Origin: an uncultured bacterium
GTDB lineage: Bacteria > CAIJMQ01
Assembly: GCA_903821905.1 (NCBI GenBank)
Contig: CAIJMQ010000103.1
Span: forward strand, 1 to 20,211
Direction: 5' to 3'
Length of the DNA stretch: 20,211 nucleotides
The notes under the pieces: model-generated
What the model was told of the DNA's origin: nothing
The model's input: the letters and a program-made list of their open reading frames with translations, nothing else
The model's database searches: none
Part shown: positions 3,550 through 18,791 of the stretch, in pieces
Layout: each line of letters opens with the position of its first letter
Position numbering within the stretch: position 1 is the stretch's first letter
Program-made: the position numbers and the translations under genes

Positions 3550-5994
3550 TCATTTAAGTTCAAATTCACCTTCAAGGCGGATATCTCTTGAAGAACTTCC
3601 AATCATTACCTTAAATTTACCTGCTTCAGCTACCCAATCTTTTCTACACACATCAAAAAATTTCATATCGGAAGGTTTTAAGATTAAGCTGACGAGTTTC
3701 TTTTCATTGGGTTCCAAATTAACTTTCTTGAACCCCTTGAGTTCTTTAACCGGTCTTTCCACGCTCGATTTTATATCTTTGAGATAAAGTTGAACTACTT
3801 CCGCACCTTCACGTAGACCTATATTTTTTATAGTAAAATTCACCTTTACATTCTCATCTTTCTTGACTTTTTGGGGCGTGATTTTTAAATCACTATAAGA
3901 AAAGTTCGTGTAGCTAAGTCCGTGTCCGAACGGGAATAAGGGTTCAAGATTATTTTTATCAAAATGACGATATCCGACAAAGATACCTTCTTTATAATGA
4001 ACAACACCGTCTACACCGGGATAATTACCATAAGCCGGAGAATCTTCCCATTTTTGCAGGAATGTTATTGGTAGTTTTCCGGAAGGATTCACTTTACCAA
4101 ACAATACATCGGCAATAGCATTGCCTCCTTCTTGTCCGGGATACCAGACTTCTATCAATGCAGGTATTTGATTAATCCAATTGCTCATTAATACGGGAGC
4201 TCCGGTATTCAAAACTACAATGGTCTTTTTGTTGGCTTTTACTATTTCTTTAATTAATTTTTCCTGGCCGCGAGGGAGGAATAAATCATTACGGTCTCCT
4301 CCTTCGCTCTCGAGTCGGTCTGATAATCCTGCAAATACAATTGCAATATCCGACTCTTTTGCAGTCTTAACAGCTTCCTTAATTATATTTTTATCAATTA
4401 TTTTCCAACGCAAGATAATTCTTGTCTCGCCGAAATGTTTATAAAATTCCACCTTAATATCTAAGGGTTTATCTTTCTTTAGTTCAACAACAATTGGTTT
4501 AGCTTGTAAAGGAGTAGTGTCCCAATTATCAAGTATAATTTCCCCATTCAAATATACTCTCGCTCCGTCATCACTAGTCATATTAAAAGCATATTTCGCT
4601 GTTCTTGGTGGGATTAGTTTGCCTGTCCATCTAATAGAAATATTATCCTTAGGCATATTGTCAGGAACCCAAGAATCCCAGTGAAAATCAAGGTGACTAT
4701 CTATCCTGCGGATTAAAGGTTCTCCTTTTAGTGTTATGTTGTTGAAATATTCTCCTGACAGTCCTATCTCCTCTTTTCCTCCTTTTGTAGTACGTAAGTA
4801 TTCAGACCCGATGGGAAGCATCTCATCTTCTATGAAAACTCCCAGCGAATGTTTTATTCTTATTGTTTTGCCAAATTTCTTCTGCAGAGCTTCAAGAGGG
4901 CTGACAGAATAAAACGGGTTACCTCTGGCACTGCCACCACCGCCGGTACGGAGTATTTCCGCATTGGGTCCGATAACAGCAATAGATTTTATTTTCTTAA
5001 TATCAAGAGGGAGAATATTCTTTTCGTTCTTCAAGAGCACGATACTTTCTTGAGATGCTTCTAAAACAAGTTTTCTATGTTCTGGTGTATCTAGTGCGCC
5101 TAGGTCGGGTTTTTTCTGATCAAAAAACCCCATTACAAACATAGTCCTTAGCATTCTTCGGACTTTATCATTAATTTTGGATTCTTTAACCAATCCTCTT
5201 TTTACTGCTTCTAAAACTTTTTCCCGTGTCAGATAAAGGTCTTTCGGCATTTCAATGTCTAATCCGGAAAACAAGGTTGGTATTGTACTGTGCACAGCTC
5301 CCCAATCTGACATCACTAAACCTTTAAACCCCCACTCATTTTTTAATATATCTGTAAGGAGAGCAGTATGTGAACTGCAATGATAACCGTTGAGCCGGTT
5401 GTAGGCGCACATTATTGCCCAAGATTTACCTTCCTGTACTGCAGCTTTGAATGCCGGCAGATAAATTTCACGGAGAGTGCGTTCGTCTACTATTGTGTCA
5501 ATGCTAAACCTGTCATTTTCCTGATTATTACATGCGAAGTGTTTGGTTGTTGCTACGACTTTCTCGCTCTGTATGCCTTTTATATACGACACGGTTATTT
5601 GTGATGTTAAGTGAGGGTCTTCGCCGAATCCTTCGAAATTTCTCCCCGCATGTGGTACTCGTTGAATATTTATGCAAGGTCCAAGTAATACGTTTCGCCC
5701 TTTAGCTTTTGTTTCACGGCCAAGTGCCTGTCCGATTCTTTTTACTAGCTCAGGATCCCAGCTTGCAGCCATGGCAATGCTTGCGGGAAATGCAGTTGCT
5801 TTGCCCCAGCGCACACTTATAGGTCCATCAGTCATATTTAATGCAGGGATGCCCAGTCGTTTATTGGGTTTGGACTCAAAACCTGTTCCACCCAGCATGT
5901 CTATTTTTTCCTCAAGAGTCATACGATGCAGTAAATCTTCTACGCGTTTTTCGATAGGAGATTTAGAATTTTTATAAATAGGTAAAGAAGACAT
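3550..5994 (-). CDS. bglX-like: glycoside hydrolase family 3 beta-glycosidase with inserted PA14 domain
   Basis: The 814-residue enzyme is a GH3 hydrolase that removes beta-linked sugars from non-reducing ends. The TIM-like N-domain carries TTKHFACNNQEND (149-161) and the nucleophile Asp230 in GLVMSDWGA. The second domain carries the acid/base segment ESEGGDR (562-568). A PA14 domain (about 411-535, from GLSGEYFNN to IILRWK) is inserted between them, as in Kluyveromyces-type beta-glucosidase I, where it shapes the substrate pocket. A fibronectin III-like domain ends the protein (about 700-805). There is no signal peptide or membrane segment, so it should act in the cytoplasm on imported glycosides. 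The start has AAGGAG at good spacing. It lies between porB and transketolase, linking sugar release to central metabolism. The exact sugar (glucose, xylose or other) is not decidable by eye. Confidence 0.92.
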   Translation of the reverse strand: MSSLPIYKNSKSPIEKRVEDLLHRMTLEEKIDMLGGTGFESKPNKRLGIPALNMTDGPISVRWGKATAFPASIAMAASWDPELVKRIGQALGRETKAKGRNVLLGPCINIQRVPHAGRNFEGFGEDPHLTSQITVSYIKGIQSEKVVATTKHFACNNQENDRFSIDTIVDERTLREIYLPAFKAAVQEGKSWAIMCAYNRLNGYHCSSHTALLTDILKNEWGFKGLVMSDWGAVHSTIPTLFSGLDIEMPKDLYLTREKVLEAVKRGLVKESKINDKVRRMLRTMFVMGFFDQKKPDLGALDTPEHRKLVLEASQESIVLLKNEKNILPLDIKKIKSIAVIGPNAEILRTGGGGSARGNPFYSVSPLEALQKKFGKTIRIKHSLGVFIEDEMLPIGSEYLRTTKGGKEEIGLSGEYFNNITLKGEPLIRRIDSHLDFHWDSWVPDNMPKDNISIRWTGKLIPPRTAKYAFNMTSDDGARVYLNGEIILDNWDTTPLQAKPIVVELKKDKPLDIKVEFYKHFGETRIILRWKIIDKNIIKEAVKTAKESDIAIVFAGLSDRLESEGGDRNDLFLPRGQEKLIKEIVKANKKTIVVLNTGAPVLMSNWINQIPALIEVWYPGQEGGNAIADVLFGKVNPSGKLPITFLQKWEDSPAYGNYPGVDGVVHYKEGIFVGYRHFDKNNLEPLFPFGHGLSYTNFSYSDLKITPQKVKKDENVKVNFTIKNIGLREGAEVVQLYLKDIKSSVERPVKELKGFKKVNLEPNEKKLVSLILKPSDMKFFDVCRKDWVAEAGKFKVMIGSSSRDIRLEGEFELK

Positions 5995-6050
5995 TTTATT
6001 AGCTCCTTTTTATAAGACTAAGGTGGAAATTGATATATTGAATAGAAAAT

Positions 6051-6986
6051 TTACTCTGATTTTTCACCAGATAGAAATAGTAGTTTTTTCCATTTCTTAT
6101 CAATATCTTCCTGTATCTCAGCAAGAAGTGCTTCGTTGCCTGCCTTTAAGAGATGTTTAAACCTGTCTTGAAGTTTCAAGAATTCAATTATCGGTTTTTT
6201 CTCTTTAGGTTTGTAGGTCAGCTTATGGACTCCTTCATCTACTTCGTATAATGGCCAGAAGCATGTCTCTACAGCTATTCTTCCTGTTTGAAGTGTTTTT
6301 TCGGGAGCACATCCCCACCCAAGACGGCAAGGCGATAGAACATTGATAAAACTGGGGCCATCCTTTGATAGTGCTTTCTGAACTTTCGTTGTTAAGTCTC
6401 TCCAATCACCAACCACTGCTTGGGCAACGTATGGAATATTATGAGCAACCATAATTTCGGTTAAATCTTTGCGGGCTTGTTCTTTACCTGGCTTCACTTT
6501 TCCGGCAGGTGATGTAGTTGTAAATCCTCCCTTGGGGGTGGCGGAAGAGCGTTGAATCCCAGTATTCATATAAGCCTGGTTGTTATAACATACATAGAGC
6601 ATTCTATGTCCTCTTTCTGCAGCACCTGATAATGACTGAAGCCCAATGTCGTATGTTCCGCCATCTCCGCCAAAAGTAATAAAATAAATCTTTGTATCTA
6701 CCGGCAATCGTCCCTGTTTTTTTAATGATTCGTAGGCAGATTCTATACCACTGCATGTTGCGGCGGCATTTTCAAAAGCGCTGTGCATCCATGGCATTTC
6801 CCATGCAGTATAAGGGAATATTGTTGTAGCTACCTCAAGACATCCGGTTGCAGACGTTACAACTAAAGGTTTTGGTGCCGCTAAAAGTACCTGCCTTACG
6901 GCAATACTGGCACCACATCCTGCGCATAACCTATGTCCACCGGACAGCAATTCTTGTTCTTTGGCTAATTCTTTTAAAGTTGGCAT
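6051..6986 (-). CDS. porB: pyruvate:ferredoxin oxidoreductase, beta subunit
   Basis: The 311-residue subunit carries the thiamine diphosphate site and one [4Fe-4S] cluster of POR, which oxidises pyruvate to acetyl-CoA and CO2 while reducing ferredoxin. Cluster cysteines are seen as C21-x2-C24 (HRLCAGCGA), C49 (ATGCLEV) and C220 (SPCRLGW). The diphosphate/Mg site runs from GGDGG (107-111) to CYNNQAYMNTG (133-143). It starts 3 bases after the stop of porA with a GGGAG ribosome site, so the two are tightly coupled. The full porG-D-A-B order is that of Thermotoga-type four-subunit POR. A related 2-oxoacid (2-oxoisovalerate) specificity cannot be excluded, but the length and sequence look like POR. 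Confidence 0.93.
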   Translation of the reverse strand: MPTLKELAKEQELLSGGHRLCAGCGASIAVRQVLLAAPKPLVVTSATGCLEVATTIFPYTAWEMPWMHSAFENAAATCSGIESAYESLKKQGRLPVDTKIYFITFGGDGGTYDIGLQSLSGAAERGHRMLYVCYNNQAYMNTGIQRSSATPKGGFTTTSPAGKVKPGKEQARKDLTEIMVAHNIPYVAQAVVGDWRDLTTKVQKALSKDGPSFINVLSPCRLGWGCAPEKTLQTGRIAVETCFWPLYEVDEGVHKLTYKPKEKKPIIEFLKLQDRFKHLLKAGNEALLAEIQEDIDKKWKKLLFLSGEKSE

Positions 6987-14455: not shown

Positions 14456-16207
14456 CTACTGCGCTGTCGGTCTCTGTGGCTGTTGTGCTTCGTGAGGCAT
14501 GTTAGGTTCTGCCCCAAAACTATAACTGACAGTAAACCATCCTGTTGTTTTCGAGTATTCCTTCTCAGGGTCTTTATCGAGTGCATCAAAGTACTCTCCG
14601 CGTAATGCAAGAGACCAATTATCGCTTAAGTTATAAACCAGTCCCACATTATATGAATAGGTTGGACGGTTTGCCTCTGGGTCTTGGCGCTCATATCCAG
14701 TTGAGGCTTGTGCTTCAGCAAACAATTTGTGTGTAATATTTTTGCTTGCATATATACCTAAAGAATAGGAATTAATAGAATTCGGATTGAAATATCCGTT
14801 AAATTTCTGCTCTGCCCAGTCGGAATAATAATAATTGTAATAAAGTTTTATATAGGGGTCTTGTTTCAACCGGTACTCTAACTTTGAAAATATAGTATTC
14901 TGACTGTTCCCGTCGGAATATTCTCCTGTCTTGTATTGCGCCGAAAACAACCAGAACCGGTTCGGTTTTAAATCTAAAGAAAAAGAACCGCTGTTTACTA
15001 TAATATTGTTATGTAAAGCCGTGATATCTTCGAACGTTTCGCGGCCGTACCCCAGGTAAAAATGCAATAAGTCACTCGGCATTAGTGTAATCCAGGTATT
15101 GGTTGTAAGAGGGGCAAAATCCGTGTCATCATAGCCACTAACATATATGTAAGAATCAGCCGCAAGGTAAGATGTGAAACGTCTGTTTATATCTATTCCG
15201 CCACGTTGAAAATTCAGTGAAGGTTTGTTTTTCTGGCGGTAAATACCGTCTTCATAGGAAGCGCCCATAACTGAGTAATCGTCAATATATTTCCCGGCGT
15301 GTAATCCGACGGATGTGATATCGAGTTTGTTACTATCAGAAGAGAAACGGTTTGACTGGTTTATGTGCACTGTCCTTATATTTTGTATCTGGCTATAAAG
15401 CTTTCTTGCAGCATGACGTTCCGGGTAAAGTGTAAATAACTTCTCAAGTGTGTTTAACGCCAAAGCGTCCTGTCCGTCCCAGTGATAAGCAAATGCTATG
15501 CCCTCAAGCGCATCGGGATTAGATGAGTTTTCTTCTAGAATATCCTGATATCTTTCTATGCCCTGTTTATAATATCCTTGCCATACACTCATACGAGCCA
15601 TACCGTTTAAGGCATTAATATTTTTTGGTTCTCTTGCAAGTACCTTTTGATAAAGTACAGTTGCTTTTTCTAATTTATCATCCCAACTTAATACTTCTGC
15701 CTTGCCTAGAAGTGCATTTATAGAAGCGGGACTTAAGGCAAGCACTGCATCGTATTTATTTATTGCTTTTTTATGTTGATTGTCCCAAACTAATGCCTGA
15801 GCCAACCCAAGTGTTATCTCTATATTGTCCGGCTCTAATTTCTCGGCTGTTTGATAAGTCTCAATCGCTTTCTTAAGCTGTCCGTTCCACTTATACTGGT
15901 CGGCAAGTTCCTTAATTATTTCTTTTTCTTTCTGAGGGTAATCTTTACGAATGCGTTCGAATAATGCTATTGCTTCATTATGACGGTCGGCATAAGTATA
16001 AACTCTTGCCCATTCTATTAACATATTTGGGTCACGAGTAAGCCAATCTGAAATACTCGTATAAAGTTCAATCGCTTCTTTATATGATTTCTTATCTACT
16101 AATTGCCGTGCTTTATTTAGAACTTCGTTGTCTGTCTCTAGAGAAAAAGAGACTAAAGAAAAACAACACAAAAAACATAAGGTCAATAGAAGTGTTTTAA
16201 TTCTCAT
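14456..16207 (-). CDS. TPR-repeat outer-membrane beta-barrel protein, probable exopolysaccharide export
   Basis: From ATG 16207 the protein has 583 residues. A signal peptide (MRIKTLLLTLCFLCCFSLVS) is followed by about seven TPR-like repeats (roughly 25-280, for example KKAIETYQTAEKLEPDN, KKAINKYDAVLALSPAS). A C-terminal half of alternating aromatic beta strands follows (YIKLYYNYYYSDW, WSLALRGEYF, WFTVSYSF). This TPR-plus-barrel layout is that of PgaA/BcsC-type exporters. After the last strand comes a Pro/Gln-rich tail of about 16 residues, so the terminal aromatic is not at the very end. The start overlaps the glycosyltransferase stop by 11 bases. A GTG at 16243 would add 12 residues before the signal peptide and is less attractive. 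It probably exports the polymer made by the adjacent GT2. Confidence 0.82.
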   Translation of the reverse strand: MRIKTLLLTLCFLCCFSLVSFSLETDNEVLNKARQLVDKKSYKEAIELYTSISDWLTRDPNMLIEWARVYTYADRHNEAIALFERIRKDYPQKEKEIIKELADQYKWNGQLKKAIETYQTAEKLEPDNIEITLGLAQALVWDNQHKKAINKYDAVLALSPASINALLGKAEVLSWDDKLEKATVLYQKVLAREPKNINALNGMARMSVWQGYYKQGIERYQDILEENSSNPDALEGIAFAYHWDGQDALALNTLEKLFTLYPERHAARKLYSQIQNIRTVHINQSNRFSSDSNKLDITSVGLHAGKYIDDYSVMGASYEDGIYRQKNKPSLNFQRGGIDINRRFTSYLAADSYIYVSGYDDTDFAPLTTNTWITLMPSDLLHFYLGYGRETFEDITALHNNIIVNSGSFSLDLKPNRFWLFSAQYKTGEYSDGNSQNTIFSKLEYRLKQDPYIKLYYNYYYSDWAEQKFNGYFNPNSINSYSLGIYASKNITHKLFAEAQASTGYERQDPEANRPTYSYNVGLVYNLSDNWSLALRGEYFDALDKDPEKEYSKTTGWFTVSYSFGAEPNMPHEAQQPQRPTAQ

Positions 16208-17549
16208 TTTTTTCGCGAGTTGTTGCAATCCATTTCTTATCACCCATTATCTCATCCCTTATTGCCACCAAGTGAGCCATGCTCTTAAAGATGGTATGAG
16301 GCCATACAAATATTGCATAATTGATATACCAGAAAGCTGAAGTTCGGGGTATAGATGTATTTTTATATGAAGCTATCACTTGATAAGGTCCGCTGAATAA
16401 AGTGTAAATAAGTGCAAAAATAATATAACCGTTTAATGGAAGTTCAACTTTTGCTCTATAAAGCCAAAATGCAAATAGAACAGGGAAGATAAGCGTACTT
16501 AAGATATCGTACGTAACGCGCCAGGATAATAAAGTTGTCCATAAAAATTTTTGTGGAAAATTTAAATACTTGTTCTTCCACGTTGCTATCTGGTATTTTA
16601 ATGAACACTGAAACCATCCCTGAGACCAGCGTTTGCGCTGATACCACAAATTTTTTATCGTAGTAGGGGCTTTTTCTTGTGAGACTATACTGCGGTCATG
16701 CACTATATGATATCCGCCAAGCAGAGCGCGTATAGTAGAATCTATATCTTCAGTTAACATTTCTTTATCAAACTTTATTTTCTTAATAACATCACTCTTC
16801 CAGTATCCGTTCGAACCGCCGAACAGCGTGGAATTAAACAAAATAGATTTAGCTGCGTGGTGAATAATATAAATCGTCTCAAATTCAATCTCTACCACAC
16901 GGCTTATTAGCGATTCTTTACCGTTACGAATCTTACAGGTTCCCTGCACGATATCATATCCTTCATCAAGCCACCGCCATGCGCGCTGTAGACAATCCGA
17001 GGCAACCATATGGTCTGCATCAAGCAAAACTATCATCTTTCCCGAAACCATATCCAGAGCATAATTTAAATTTTCACTTTTCCCGTGCGAGCCGTAAGCA
17101 TTAGCCAAAATCAACTCAGGCCACTTTAAAGCAAGTTCCCTTAACTTAAGTTCCAGCTCCTCCAGATGAGGTGTGTTATAAACCAGAATAACCTCTATAC
17201 CATCCTTTGGACGCTGCACATTTTGCAGGATATTAAGCAAAGTTGTTTCTATAACGCTCACTTCATTTGGCAGATAAGCAACTACTATAAAGGTGGTCTT
17301 GGGGAGGGGAATATGTTCCGCAGTAGATAACTCCTTAAATCGTTTTCTTTTGAGGACAATAGTGGTTTGTAAATATGTCAAACTCGCCTGAAAGACCAGA
17401 ATAGTAACCAAAAAAGTGTAACTTATATTAAGTACGGTGGGCCAACGCTGGGCCAACAAAAAGAAAACCAGCGTAGGTATAACGATAATAATAAGTAAGA
17501 TTTCAAATATCTTGAAACATTCATTTACATCTCTCCGAGTTATATTCAT
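16197..17549 (-). CDS. processive membrane glycosyltransferase, GT2 family (exopolysaccharide synthase-like)
   Basis: The 450-residue protein has two N-terminal membrane segments (about 13-33 and 42-62), a cytoplasmic GT-A domain (about 84-310) and several C-terminal membrane segments (about 335-425). This is the plan of PgaC/BcsA/hyaluronan-type synthases. Motifs: SHGKSENLNYAL (154-165), DAD (177-179, DxD), TED (267-269, catalytic base) and QRKRW (304-308, QxxRW of processive enzymes). The first conserved Asp region reads VILVYNTP, without the usual Asp pair. No PilZ domain is attached, so regulation by c-di-GMP is not evident. The sugar and polymer are unknown. A TPR/barrel exporter overlaps its end, and two small ferritin-like genes precede it by 20 bases. 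Confidence 0.88.
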   Translation of the reverse strand: MNITRRDVNECFKIFEILLIIIVIPTLVFFLLAQRWPTVLNISYTFLVTILVFQASLTYLQTTIVLKRKRFKELSTAEHIPLPKTTFIVVAYLPNEVSVIETTLLNILQNVQRPKDGIEVILVYNTPHLEELELKLRELALKWPELILANAYGSHGKSENLNYALDMVSGKMIVLLDADHMVASDCLQRAWRWLDEGYDIVQGTCKIRNGKESLISRVVEIEFETIYIIHHAAKSILFNSTLFGGSNGYWKSDVIKKIKFDKEMLTEDIDSTIRALLGGYHIVHDRSIVSQEKAPTTIKNLWYQRKRWSQGWFQCSLKYQIATWKNKYLNFPQKFLWTTLLSWRVTYDILSTLIFPVLFAFWLYRAKVELPLNGYIIFALIYTLFSGPYQVIASYKNTSIPRTSAFWYINYAIFVWPHTIFKSMAHLVAIRDEIMGDKKWIATTREKNEN

Positions 17550-17569: not shown

Positions 17570-17758
17570 TTACTTAAGCAGAAGCAATAACTTTTGCCAG
17601 AGCTTAACGTGTTTAAGCTCGTCCTTTGCTATTTTGCCAAACGTTTCTTTCATTGTCGGCATATCTACTTTTTCTGTTAGGTCAGAATAGATATCATAAG
17701 CATTCTTGTCTAAAGCCAATAACTGCAGCATTCTTGCTTCCAATACACGCTTACTCAT
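17570..17758 (-). CDS. half-size ferritin-like helical hairpin protein (second of a pair)
   Basis: The 62-residue protein is predicted to be two helices. It reads like one half of a rubrerythrin/ferritin-like domain: helix one with LLALDKNAYDIYSDLTEK (Asp17 where the family has Glu, then Tyr21 and Tyr24), helix two with IAKDELKHVKLW, giving an intact E47-x2-H50 metal motif. A normal ferritin-like domain needs four helices, so it must dimerise or pair with the preceding 73-residue protein. Its ATG overlaps the upstream stop by 8 bases (ATGAGTAA), and AAGGA (17767-17771) lies 8 bases before it, so it is independently initiated and translationally coupled. Metal binding is inferred, not shown. 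Confidence 0.7.
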   Translation of the reverse strand: MSKRVLEARMLQLLALDKNAYDIYSDLTEKVDMPTMKETFGKIAKDELKHVKLWQKLLLLLK

Positions 17759-17972
17759 CTTTTAATTCCTTTATCATTTTGCCTACGATACTTCCATGCC
17801 TGGAGCTATCCTTCTTTATGGAAAGTATAATATTCCGGATTTGCTTGCTTTTCTTCGGGTCTATGTCTTCAGAGAAAAGTTCGGGCTGAAGTAAATCAAT
17901 AAGAGATACAACCATTTTCTCTTCCATCTCGTAAGCCCTTCGTAACCTGTCTAAAAGTTCTTCCTTATCCAT
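17751..17972 (-). CDS. half-size ferritin-like helical hairpin protein (first of a pair)
   Basis: The 73-residue, highly charged protein is predicted as two helices. The first (AYEMEEKMVVSLIDLLQ) has acidic candidates Glu15, Glu17 and Glu18. The second (IRNIILSIKKDSSRHGSIVGKMIKEL) has Asp55 and His59. This looks like the other half of a ferritin-like bundle, with DxxxH in place of ExxH. I chose ATG 17972 rather than the longer start at 17987: AGGAAGG lies 5 bases before 17972, inside what the longer form would translate, and the promoter would start transcription near 17985. The gene heads a four-gene unit with the GT2 and TPR-barrel genes. A single-base frameshift splitting one gene is the main alternative. 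Confidence 0.65.
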   Translation of the reverse strand: MDKEELLDRLRRAYEMEEKMVVSLIDLLQPELFSEDIDPKKSKQIRNIILSIKKDSSRHGSIVGKMIKELKDE

Positions 17973-17977
17973 ATTAA

Positions 17978-17984
17978 CCTTCCT
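17978..17984 (-). promoter_or_regulatory. ribosome binding site that decides the start of the first small ferritin-like gene
   Basis: The minus-strand bases AGGAAGG lie 5 bases before ATG 17972 and would be coding if the upstream ATG at 17987 were used. Confidence 0.6.
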
Positions 17985-17991
17985 CATGCGT

Positions 17992-18095: not shown

Positions 18096-18791
18096 TTATT
18101 CTATCTTATCAGATTTTTTCAAATTACATTTTGCACACAATAAACGTATATTTTTTGCTGTTAGGCTTGTTCCACCTCTTGAGAATGGCAAGTCATGATC
18201 AAAATGTAAATTCTTATTCGAAGTACATAATACGCATCTACCTTTATCCCTTTGCCATACTTCTTTCTTGACTTCTGTTGGAATTAGTCTGGTATGTTCG
18301 ATATCAATATATAACTTATGATTTGCGTGATTTACGCTTTGGTTCTCGGATAGTTTTAATATAAAAACAAAAACGGTTCTTCGTCCATCAAATTGAGTTT
18401 TATAATCTATTAAGTTGAAAAAACCTTTTAATGACCAAACTCCTGGCAGAATTTTTTCATATGCCTTAACTAATTCAGGGATAGATTGGCTTATTTTATA
18501 TCGTTCCACAGCATTAATGAAATAACCATTTTGTGTTAATTTACCATTGCGCGTGTTTCGCGGTTGGTCTAATTCTTTAGGATTAATTTCATGCGATGTG
18601 CGAGGTTCATCATGACCTTCATATTCAATAGTAACACCATCATTAAGGATCTTGTCTCTATAAGGTGCATTCGTTCTTCTAGACATCAAAATCAAAGAGT
18701 AGTGAGGGTTTATTCTAAAATTCATTCCTTTCTGAAGAGTTTGTTTTTCTGCATTACACATCTCACTATATGAAAAAATCTGATCTAACAT
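18096..18791 (-). CDS. HNH endonuclease with N-terminal SRA/YDG-like domain (possible modification-dependent nuclease)
   Basis: The 231-residue protein ends in an HNH nuclease: VWQRDKGRCVLC (179-189, first CxxC), HFDHDLPFSRGGTS (196-209, catalytic His199 in DH), Asn214, and LLCAKCNLKKSD (217-228, second CxxC). The N-terminal two thirds (NPHYSLILMSRRTNAPYRDK, then IEYEGHDEPR) resembles the SRA/YDG-type fold of Type IV restriction-like enzymes that read modified DNA bases. That assignment is from memory of the family and is less sure than the HNH. No ribosome site precedes ATG 18791. ATG 18758 (MCNAEKQ) is an alternative that would start closer to the conserved part. It follows the GyrI-like gene by 10 bases. 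Confidence 0.82.
   Translation of the reverse strand: MLDQIFSYSEMCNAEKQTLQKGMNFRINPHYSLILMSRRTNAPYRDKILNDGVTIEYEGHDEPRTSHEINPKELDQPRNTRNGKLTQNGYFINAVERYKISQSIPELVKAYEKILPGVWSLKGFFNLIDYKTQFDGRRTVFVFILKLSENQSVNHANHKLYIDIEHTRLIPTEVKKEVWQRDKGRCVLCTSNKNLHFDHDLPFSRGGTSLTAKNIRLLCAKCNLKKSDKIE

What the first reader, a model, noticed from the sequence alone, without database searches (positions are those of the whole stretch)
17570..17972. A ferritin-like four-helix bundle split into two overlapping mini-genes
Two predicted helical-hairpin proteins (73 and 62 residues) overlap by 8 bases, each with its own ribosome site. The second has an intact ExxH (E47, H50) in a rubrerythrin-like context; the first has DxxxH (D55, H59). 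Neither can form a four-helix bundle alone, so they may make a two-part di-metal site, in the spirit of dimeric encapsulated ferritins but as a heterodimer. The alternative is one gene broken by a single-base shift.
Basis: partly seen in the sequence, partly recalled or inferred. Interest (0 to 1): 0.62.

Follow-up and report, generated by a model that had tools for sequence, protein, structure and literature searches.

The report
Two-gene split ferritin-like pair
Two tiny overlapping genes each encode half of a ferritin-like protein; the same two-gene arrangement is kept in dozens of related bacteria, next to or fused with biofilm-signalling and oxidative-stress genes, so it looks like a real, undescribed two-part metal protein rather than a broken gene.

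Summary
The window carries gene A (17754-17972, 73 aa) and gene B (17573-17758, 62 aa) on the minus strand, overlapping by 8 nt, each with its own ribosome site. I found A in 72 of 384 Omnitrophota genomes. Of 81 A genes, 78 have B directly downstream. None is fused: in 76 the frames differ, and in 2 a stop intervenes. A and B are ancient paralogues (HHalign 96%; two clean clades, support 0.999). B carries the diiron half-site D/E..ExxH; its nearest solved relatives are encapsulated ferritins and designed 'due ferri' hairpins. A keeps E17 and H59 in 78/78, but S/T replaces the Glu of ExxH. One clade lost B's ligands and A's extra polar residues together, which suggests a shared site. B is fused to PilZ, GGDEF or receiver-CofD domains in 12 loci. 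Neighbours include polysaccharide synthases, oxidative-damage genes, hemerythrin/CRP and two-component genes. Best reading: an obligate heterodimeric half-ferritin with an asymmetric metal site, used as a redox or iron input for exopolysaccharide and stress control. Physical pairing, metal binding and signalling remain untested.

The parts
17751..17972 (-). Gene A: 73-aa helical hairpin, invariant E17 and H59, S56 in place of the ExxH Glu; no Pfam or NCBIfam family
17570..17758 (-). Gene B: 62-aa helical hairpin with diiron half-site D17, E47xxH50
17751..17758 (-). 8-nt overlap of A stop and B start (ATGAGTAA), consistent with translational coupling
17978..17984 (-). Shine-Dalgarno-like AGGAAGG for A, 5 nt before ATG 17972
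   Evidence: read directly
17767..17770 (-). Shine-Dalgarno-like AGGA for B, 8 nt before ATG 17758; such sites precede 45 of 60 clear B starts against 25% of random positions
16197..17549 (-). GT2 polysaccharide synthase (PgaC / cellulose synthase-like), conserved next to A-B; likely client in the window
14456..16243 (-). TPR plus beta-barrel export-porin-like protein (PgaA/BcsC-like), conserved after the synthase

Best explanation
A and B are two co-translated helical-hairpin proteins that arose by an old duplication and are kept unfused. Each hairpin is half of a ferritin-like four-helix bundle, so one A and one B should pair, antiparallel, around one shared metal site: from B, D/E17, E47 and H50 (a full diiron half-site); from A, E17 (perhaps with E18 or D55) and H59, with Ser/Thr replacing the fourth Glu. 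The asymmetric site would bind iron or another metal and react with O2 or peroxide, or change redox state. That state would be passed through B, which carries PilZ, GGDEF or receiver-CofD domains in other species, to control exopolysaccharide and stress outputs; in the window the likely client is the adjacent GT2 synthase and TPR-barrel exporter. Shown: two genes, conserved pairing, A-B homology, ligand pattern, no fusion, fusions and contexts of relatives. Inferred: physical heterodimer, bound metal, redox sensing, control of the synthase.
For: 78 of 81 A genes have B directly downstream, never fused. A and B are homologous (96.3%, E 1.5e-9) and form two clean clades that evolve together (0 misplaced, support 0.999; r 0.74). 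A E17/H59 78/78; B D/E17 71, E47 70, H50 70 of 78; one clade of seven pairs lost B's ligands and A's E18/D55/[ST]56 together. B matches designed diiron hairpins, EncB, EncC, EncFtn and rubrerythrin in sequence and fold. B is fused to PilZ, GGDEF or receiver-CofD in 12 loci. Neighbours: GT2 29/78, GH26 15, receivers 17, FAD disulfide reductase 13, OGG 12, hemerythrin 9.
Against: No complex was modelled and no metal or activity is known. The two single-chain models of joined A-B did not give a clean ferritin bundle. A lacks the second ExxH Glu, so it may not complete a di-metal site. Linked genes would show correlated trees without contact. The co-loss of ligands is one evolutionary event. In the window no output domain is fused to B.
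Confidence: 0.55

Rival explanations
1. The A-B heterodimer is an enzyme first (peroxidase, ferroxidase or similar, rubrerythrin-like) that protects neighbouring functions from oxidants, with no signalling role.
For: Thirteen pairs sit beside an FAD disulfide reductase or an 8-oxoguanine glycosylase, several also near rubrerythrin and 160-aa ferritin-like genes. B matches rubrerythrin and ferroxidase hairpins.
Against: Fusion of B to PilZ, GGDEF and receiver-CofD, and neighbouring receivers and kinases, fit an input module better. A has lost one catalytic Glu. One clade lost B's site but kept the pair beside receivers.
Confidence: 0.25
2. A and B do not pair with each other: B is a homodimeric half-ferritin like EncFtn, and A is a separate homodimer or adaptor.
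For: EncFtn hairpins are homodimers (PMC5012862); B has a complete half-site; lone B-like hairpins exist in the same phylum (L061, L065).
Against: Strict pairing, order and co-evolution, and the joint loss of polar residues in A and B in one clade.
Confidence: 0.12
3. The pair is a metal-free structural or adaptor coiled coil.
For: Seven pairs lack B's ligands but keep the pair and a signalling context.
Against: The ligand residues are the most conserved positions in the rest.
Confidence: 0.06
4. One gene broken by a frameshift or sequencing error.
For: The two frames overlap, and the joined sequence matches Rubrerythrin.
Against: The split is conserved in 78 loci with different junctions and frames, and no fused form was seen.
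Confidence: 0.01

Closest known systems
Encapsulated ferritin (EncFtn, EncB/EncC; PMC5012862, PMC11202242)
   Same: Two-helix half-ferritin with E plus ExxH; a bundle completed only by pairing two chains; B hairpin superposes on EncB (1.1 A, 59 residues)
   Different: EncFtn is one gene, a symmetric homodimer within a decamer, cargo of an encapsulin. Here two diverged genes, an asymmetric site, no encapsulin in 22 genomes, fusions to signalling domains
Rubrerythrin / sulerythrin (PF02915)
   Same: Joined A+B passes the Pfam cut-off; sulerythrin makes its bundles from hairpins of two chains by domain swapping (PMC12833474)
   Different: Single chain with two ExxH motifs; here two chains and only one ExxH
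Designed due ferri (DF) diiron hairpins (2hz8, 1mft)
   Same: Top sequence matches of the B profile (E 8e-12): minimal hairpins forming a diiron bundle
   Different: Artificial; no A-like partner with a degenerate half-site
Hemerythrin-GGDEF sensors such as Bhr-DGC (PMC9388753)
   Same: Diiron four-helix unit linked to c-di-GMP output; a works-like comparison only
   Different: Different family and His-rich ligand set, a single chain

Membership tests
Encapsulated ferritin (EncFtn) | Two-helix hairpin with E and ExxH | tested here: met
   Met by B; A has [ST]xxH instead
Encapsulated ferritin (EncFtn) | NCBIfam EncB family cut-off | tested here: not met
   14.9 bits against 90
Encapsulated ferritin (EncFtn) | Encapsulin shell in the genome | tested here: not met
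   PF04454 absent in 22 genomes including the window's (84% complete); positive controls found
Encapsulated ferritin (EncFtn) | Homodecamer with symmetric ferroxidase centre | not testable with these tools
   Needs complex modelling or experiment
Rubrerythrin (PF02915) | Pfam gathering score of each protein | tested here: not met
   A 13.7, B 20.6, cut-off 22.8; artificially joined 32.2
Rubrerythrin (PF02915) | Single-chain four-helix domain with two ExxH motifs | tested here: not met
   Two separate chains in 78 loci; A lacks the Glu
Ferritin-like superfamily (fold level) | Hairpin fold and diiron half-site | tested here: met
   Met by B. A by homology to B; A's own structural match is unspecific
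Hemerythrin-type sensor | Hemerythrin domain and ligand set | tested here: not met
   No hemerythrin family match in A or B
PgaC/PgaA polysaccharide system (neighbour genes) | NCBIfam equivalog cut-off | tested here: not met
   Synthase 89.6 bits against 422.3; porin 59.2 against 366.65: related, product unknown

The most novel reading that the evidence does not exclude
A-B represents the unfused, duplicated and diverged stage proposed on the way from homodimeric half-ferritins to single-chain ferritins, and has been recruited as an obligate heterodimeric metal sensor that plugs into c-di-GMP, two-component and polysaccharide systems across a bacterial phylum.
Probability: 0.3. Interest if true: 0.82.

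Novelty: new variant of a known kind. Interest (0 to 1): 0.62.

Why it matters
Work on encapsulated ferritin proposed that four-helix ferritins arose by duplicating and linking a two-helix ancestor, linkage relaxing the need for a symmetric site (PMC5012862). Here is a widespread natural module in which duplication and asymmetry exist without the link, so that idea becomes testable. If the sensor reading holds, it adds another diiron input, beside hemerythrin, for c-di-GMP and exopolysaccharide control in a barely cultured phylum. The genes are short, have no Pfam or NCBIfam family of their own, and would usually be called hypothetical.

Tried and rejected
Frameshift or sequencing error: rejected by 78 conserved split pairs. 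Programmed frameshifting to a fused product: rejected, since three frame relations and variable spacing cannot share one mechanism. Fission of the local 160-aa fused ferritin-like protein in the order A then B: not supported, since B resembles its N-terminal half and A neither half. Encapsulin cargo: no encapsulin. Plasmid and viral carriage: no match in one search each. AlphaFold2 of window A and B joined by a +1 word for folding only (133 aa, pLDDT 93.6, pTM 0.57) gave two good hairpins on one straight helix, so it says nothing about docking. AlphaFold2 of a relative read through its stop (L135, 149 aa, pLDDT 88.6, pTM 0.68) aligned with rubrerythrin and sulerythrin over 123-132 residues only at rmsd 6-7.5 A, inconclusive. 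Hits in the window's own taxonomic family (L004, L005) are longer ferritin-like proteins, not orthologues. Literature searches found no description of split heteromeric half-ferritins, in an open-access library only.

Full report
WHAT IS THERE. The window (contig C103 of an 84% complete MAG, 1.3 Mb) holds two ORFs on the minus strand: A, 17972 to 17751 (73 aa), and B, 17758 to 17570 (62 aa). They overlap by ATGAGTAA and each has a Shine-Dalgarno-like site. A possible upstream start of A at 17987 is not supported by homologues, which begin at the same residue as the 17972 ATG. Downstream follow a GT2 polysaccharide synthase (16197-17549) and a TPR plus beta-barrel protein (14456-16243). Upstream is an HNH endonuclease gene.

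IS THE SPLIT REAL. A B-protein scan of the genome collection gave one hit, an Omnitrophota MAG (L002) with 56-57% identity and the same order A-B-GT2-TPR/barrel, but with a 4-nt ATGA overlap instead of 8. Profile searches over 384 genomes of that phylum found B relatives and then A in 72 genomes. Fetching these regions gave 81 A genes, 78 with B directly downstream. The junction varies (ORF-level overlap of 11 nt in 42 pairs; others -8, -4, -1, 0, +1, +2, +3 and more). The B frame is +1 in 64, +2 in 12 and 0 in 2, where a stop separates them. SD-like motifs precede 45 of 60 clear B starts against 25% of random positions. No continuous A-B frame was seen. The frameshift alternative is excluded.

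WHAT A AND B ARE. Alone, neither window protein reaches a Pfam or NCBIfam cut-off; artificially joined they match Rubrerythrin with 32.2 bits (cut-off 22.8). The B profile matches designed due-ferri diiron proteins (best E 8e-12), TM1526, EncB, EncC, EncFtn and rubrerythrin in the PDB; A has no significant match. By profile comparison A and B are homologous (96.3%, E 1.5e-9). B also matches the N-terminal half of the 160-aa ferritin-like family common in these genomes (97.5%), whereas A matches neither half. In one tree of all 156 proteins, A and B form two clean clades (0 misplaced, support 0.999), and their distance matrices correlate (r 0.74, permuted maximum 0.08). So the duplication came before the spread of the pair, and the two copies have travelled together. 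The correlation alone would also follow from linkage.

LIGANDS. Across 78 pairs, A has E17 78, H59 78, E/D18 68, D/E55 63 and S/T56 69; B has D/E17 71, Y24 64, E47 70 and H50 70. Taking the loops in the model as fold lines, A E17 faces 55/56 and B D17 faces E47, so E17, D55/S56 and H59 of A occupy the places of D17, E47 and H50 of B (inference from helix limits). The ExxH Glu is therefore S/T in A. A clade of seven pairs (monophyletic in both trees, support about 0.99) lost B's D/E17 and ExxH, and its A proteins lost E18, D55 and S/T56 but kept E17 and H59. It is one event, but it ties the A residues to the B site.

STRUCTURE. AlphaFold2 of window A and B as one chain (joined by reading GATG as one codon, for folding only) gave two confident hairpins (pLDDT 93.6) connected by one straight helix. 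The B hairpin superposes on EncB (Z 10.7, 1.1 A, 59 residues) and on EncFtn at 0.7 A over 61. A natural pair in the same frame, read through its stop, gave pTM 0.68 and only loose whole-chain alignment with rubrerythrin and sulerythrin. Direct docking of A on B could not be computed.

CONTEXT. B carries C-terminal output domains in 12 loci: PilZ (nine by sequence, two checked by Pfam), GGDEF (L139), receiver plus CofD (L044, L048). Within two upstream and three downstream same-strand genes: GT2 29 of 78, TPR 19, receivers 17, GH26 15, FAD disulfide reductase 13, OGG glycosylase 12, CRP 11, 160-aa ferritin 9, hemerythrin 9, histidine kinase 8 (one member of most clusters was checked by Pfam, the rest assigned by BLAST clustering). 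Two themes recur: exopolysaccharide/c-di-GMP and oxidative stress. The known parallel in function is hemerythrin-GGDEF, where the diiron redox state controls c-di-GMP synthesis (PMC9388753).

BEST READING. An obligate A-B heterodimer forming one ferritin-like bundle with an asymmetric metal site, acting as a redox, O2 or iron input. Steps shown: two genes, conserved pairing, homology, ligand conservation, fusions and contexts. Steps inferred: physical pairing (I would give 0.8), metal (0.65), sensing rather than catalysis (0.55), control of the neighbouring synthase in the window (0.4).

NOVELTY. EncFtn authors proposed that ferritins arose from duplication and linking of a half-ferritin (PMC5012862). 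A-B has the duplication and the asymmetry without the link. Whether it is a relic or a later unfused duplicate is open. Literature searches found no description, within an open-access library only.

LIMITS. Only the window's small phylum (7 genomes) and Omnitrophota could be searched; genomes are MAGs; no complex modelling; no expression data.

Noticed in passing
L044:3971-5491 and L048:3983-5494: B hairpin fused to a receiver domain and a CofD/YvcK-like domain in one 503-506 aa protein, with A as a separate gene just upstream.
   Followed up: partly
L052 (G079), minus strand ORF of 344 aa: A B-like hairpin fused to a GGDEF-like protein with no A gene next to it.
   Followed up: no
L061:325-513 and L065 (59-aa ORF near 5977-6156, minus strand): Lone B-like hairpins (59-62 aa, E..ExxH) without an A partner in the fetched stretch: possible homodimeric half-ferritins in the same phylum.
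   Followed up: no
L115, L116, L149, L151, L153-L155: A clade of pairs in which B lost D/E17 and ExxH and A lost E18/D55/[ST]56, next to receivers and kinases: possibly a metal-free derivative.
   Followed up: partly
L124, L140, L148: Three A genes with no recognisable B downstream.
   Followed up: no
window 18096-18791: HNH endonuclease gene directly upstream of A, same strand; not seen beside A-B in other loci.
   Followed up: no
L049/L051/L117 and others: Recurrent cluster TPR protein - GT2 - GH26 glycosidase - A - B(-PilZ): looks like an undescribed exopolysaccharide system in Omnitrophota.
   Followed up: partly
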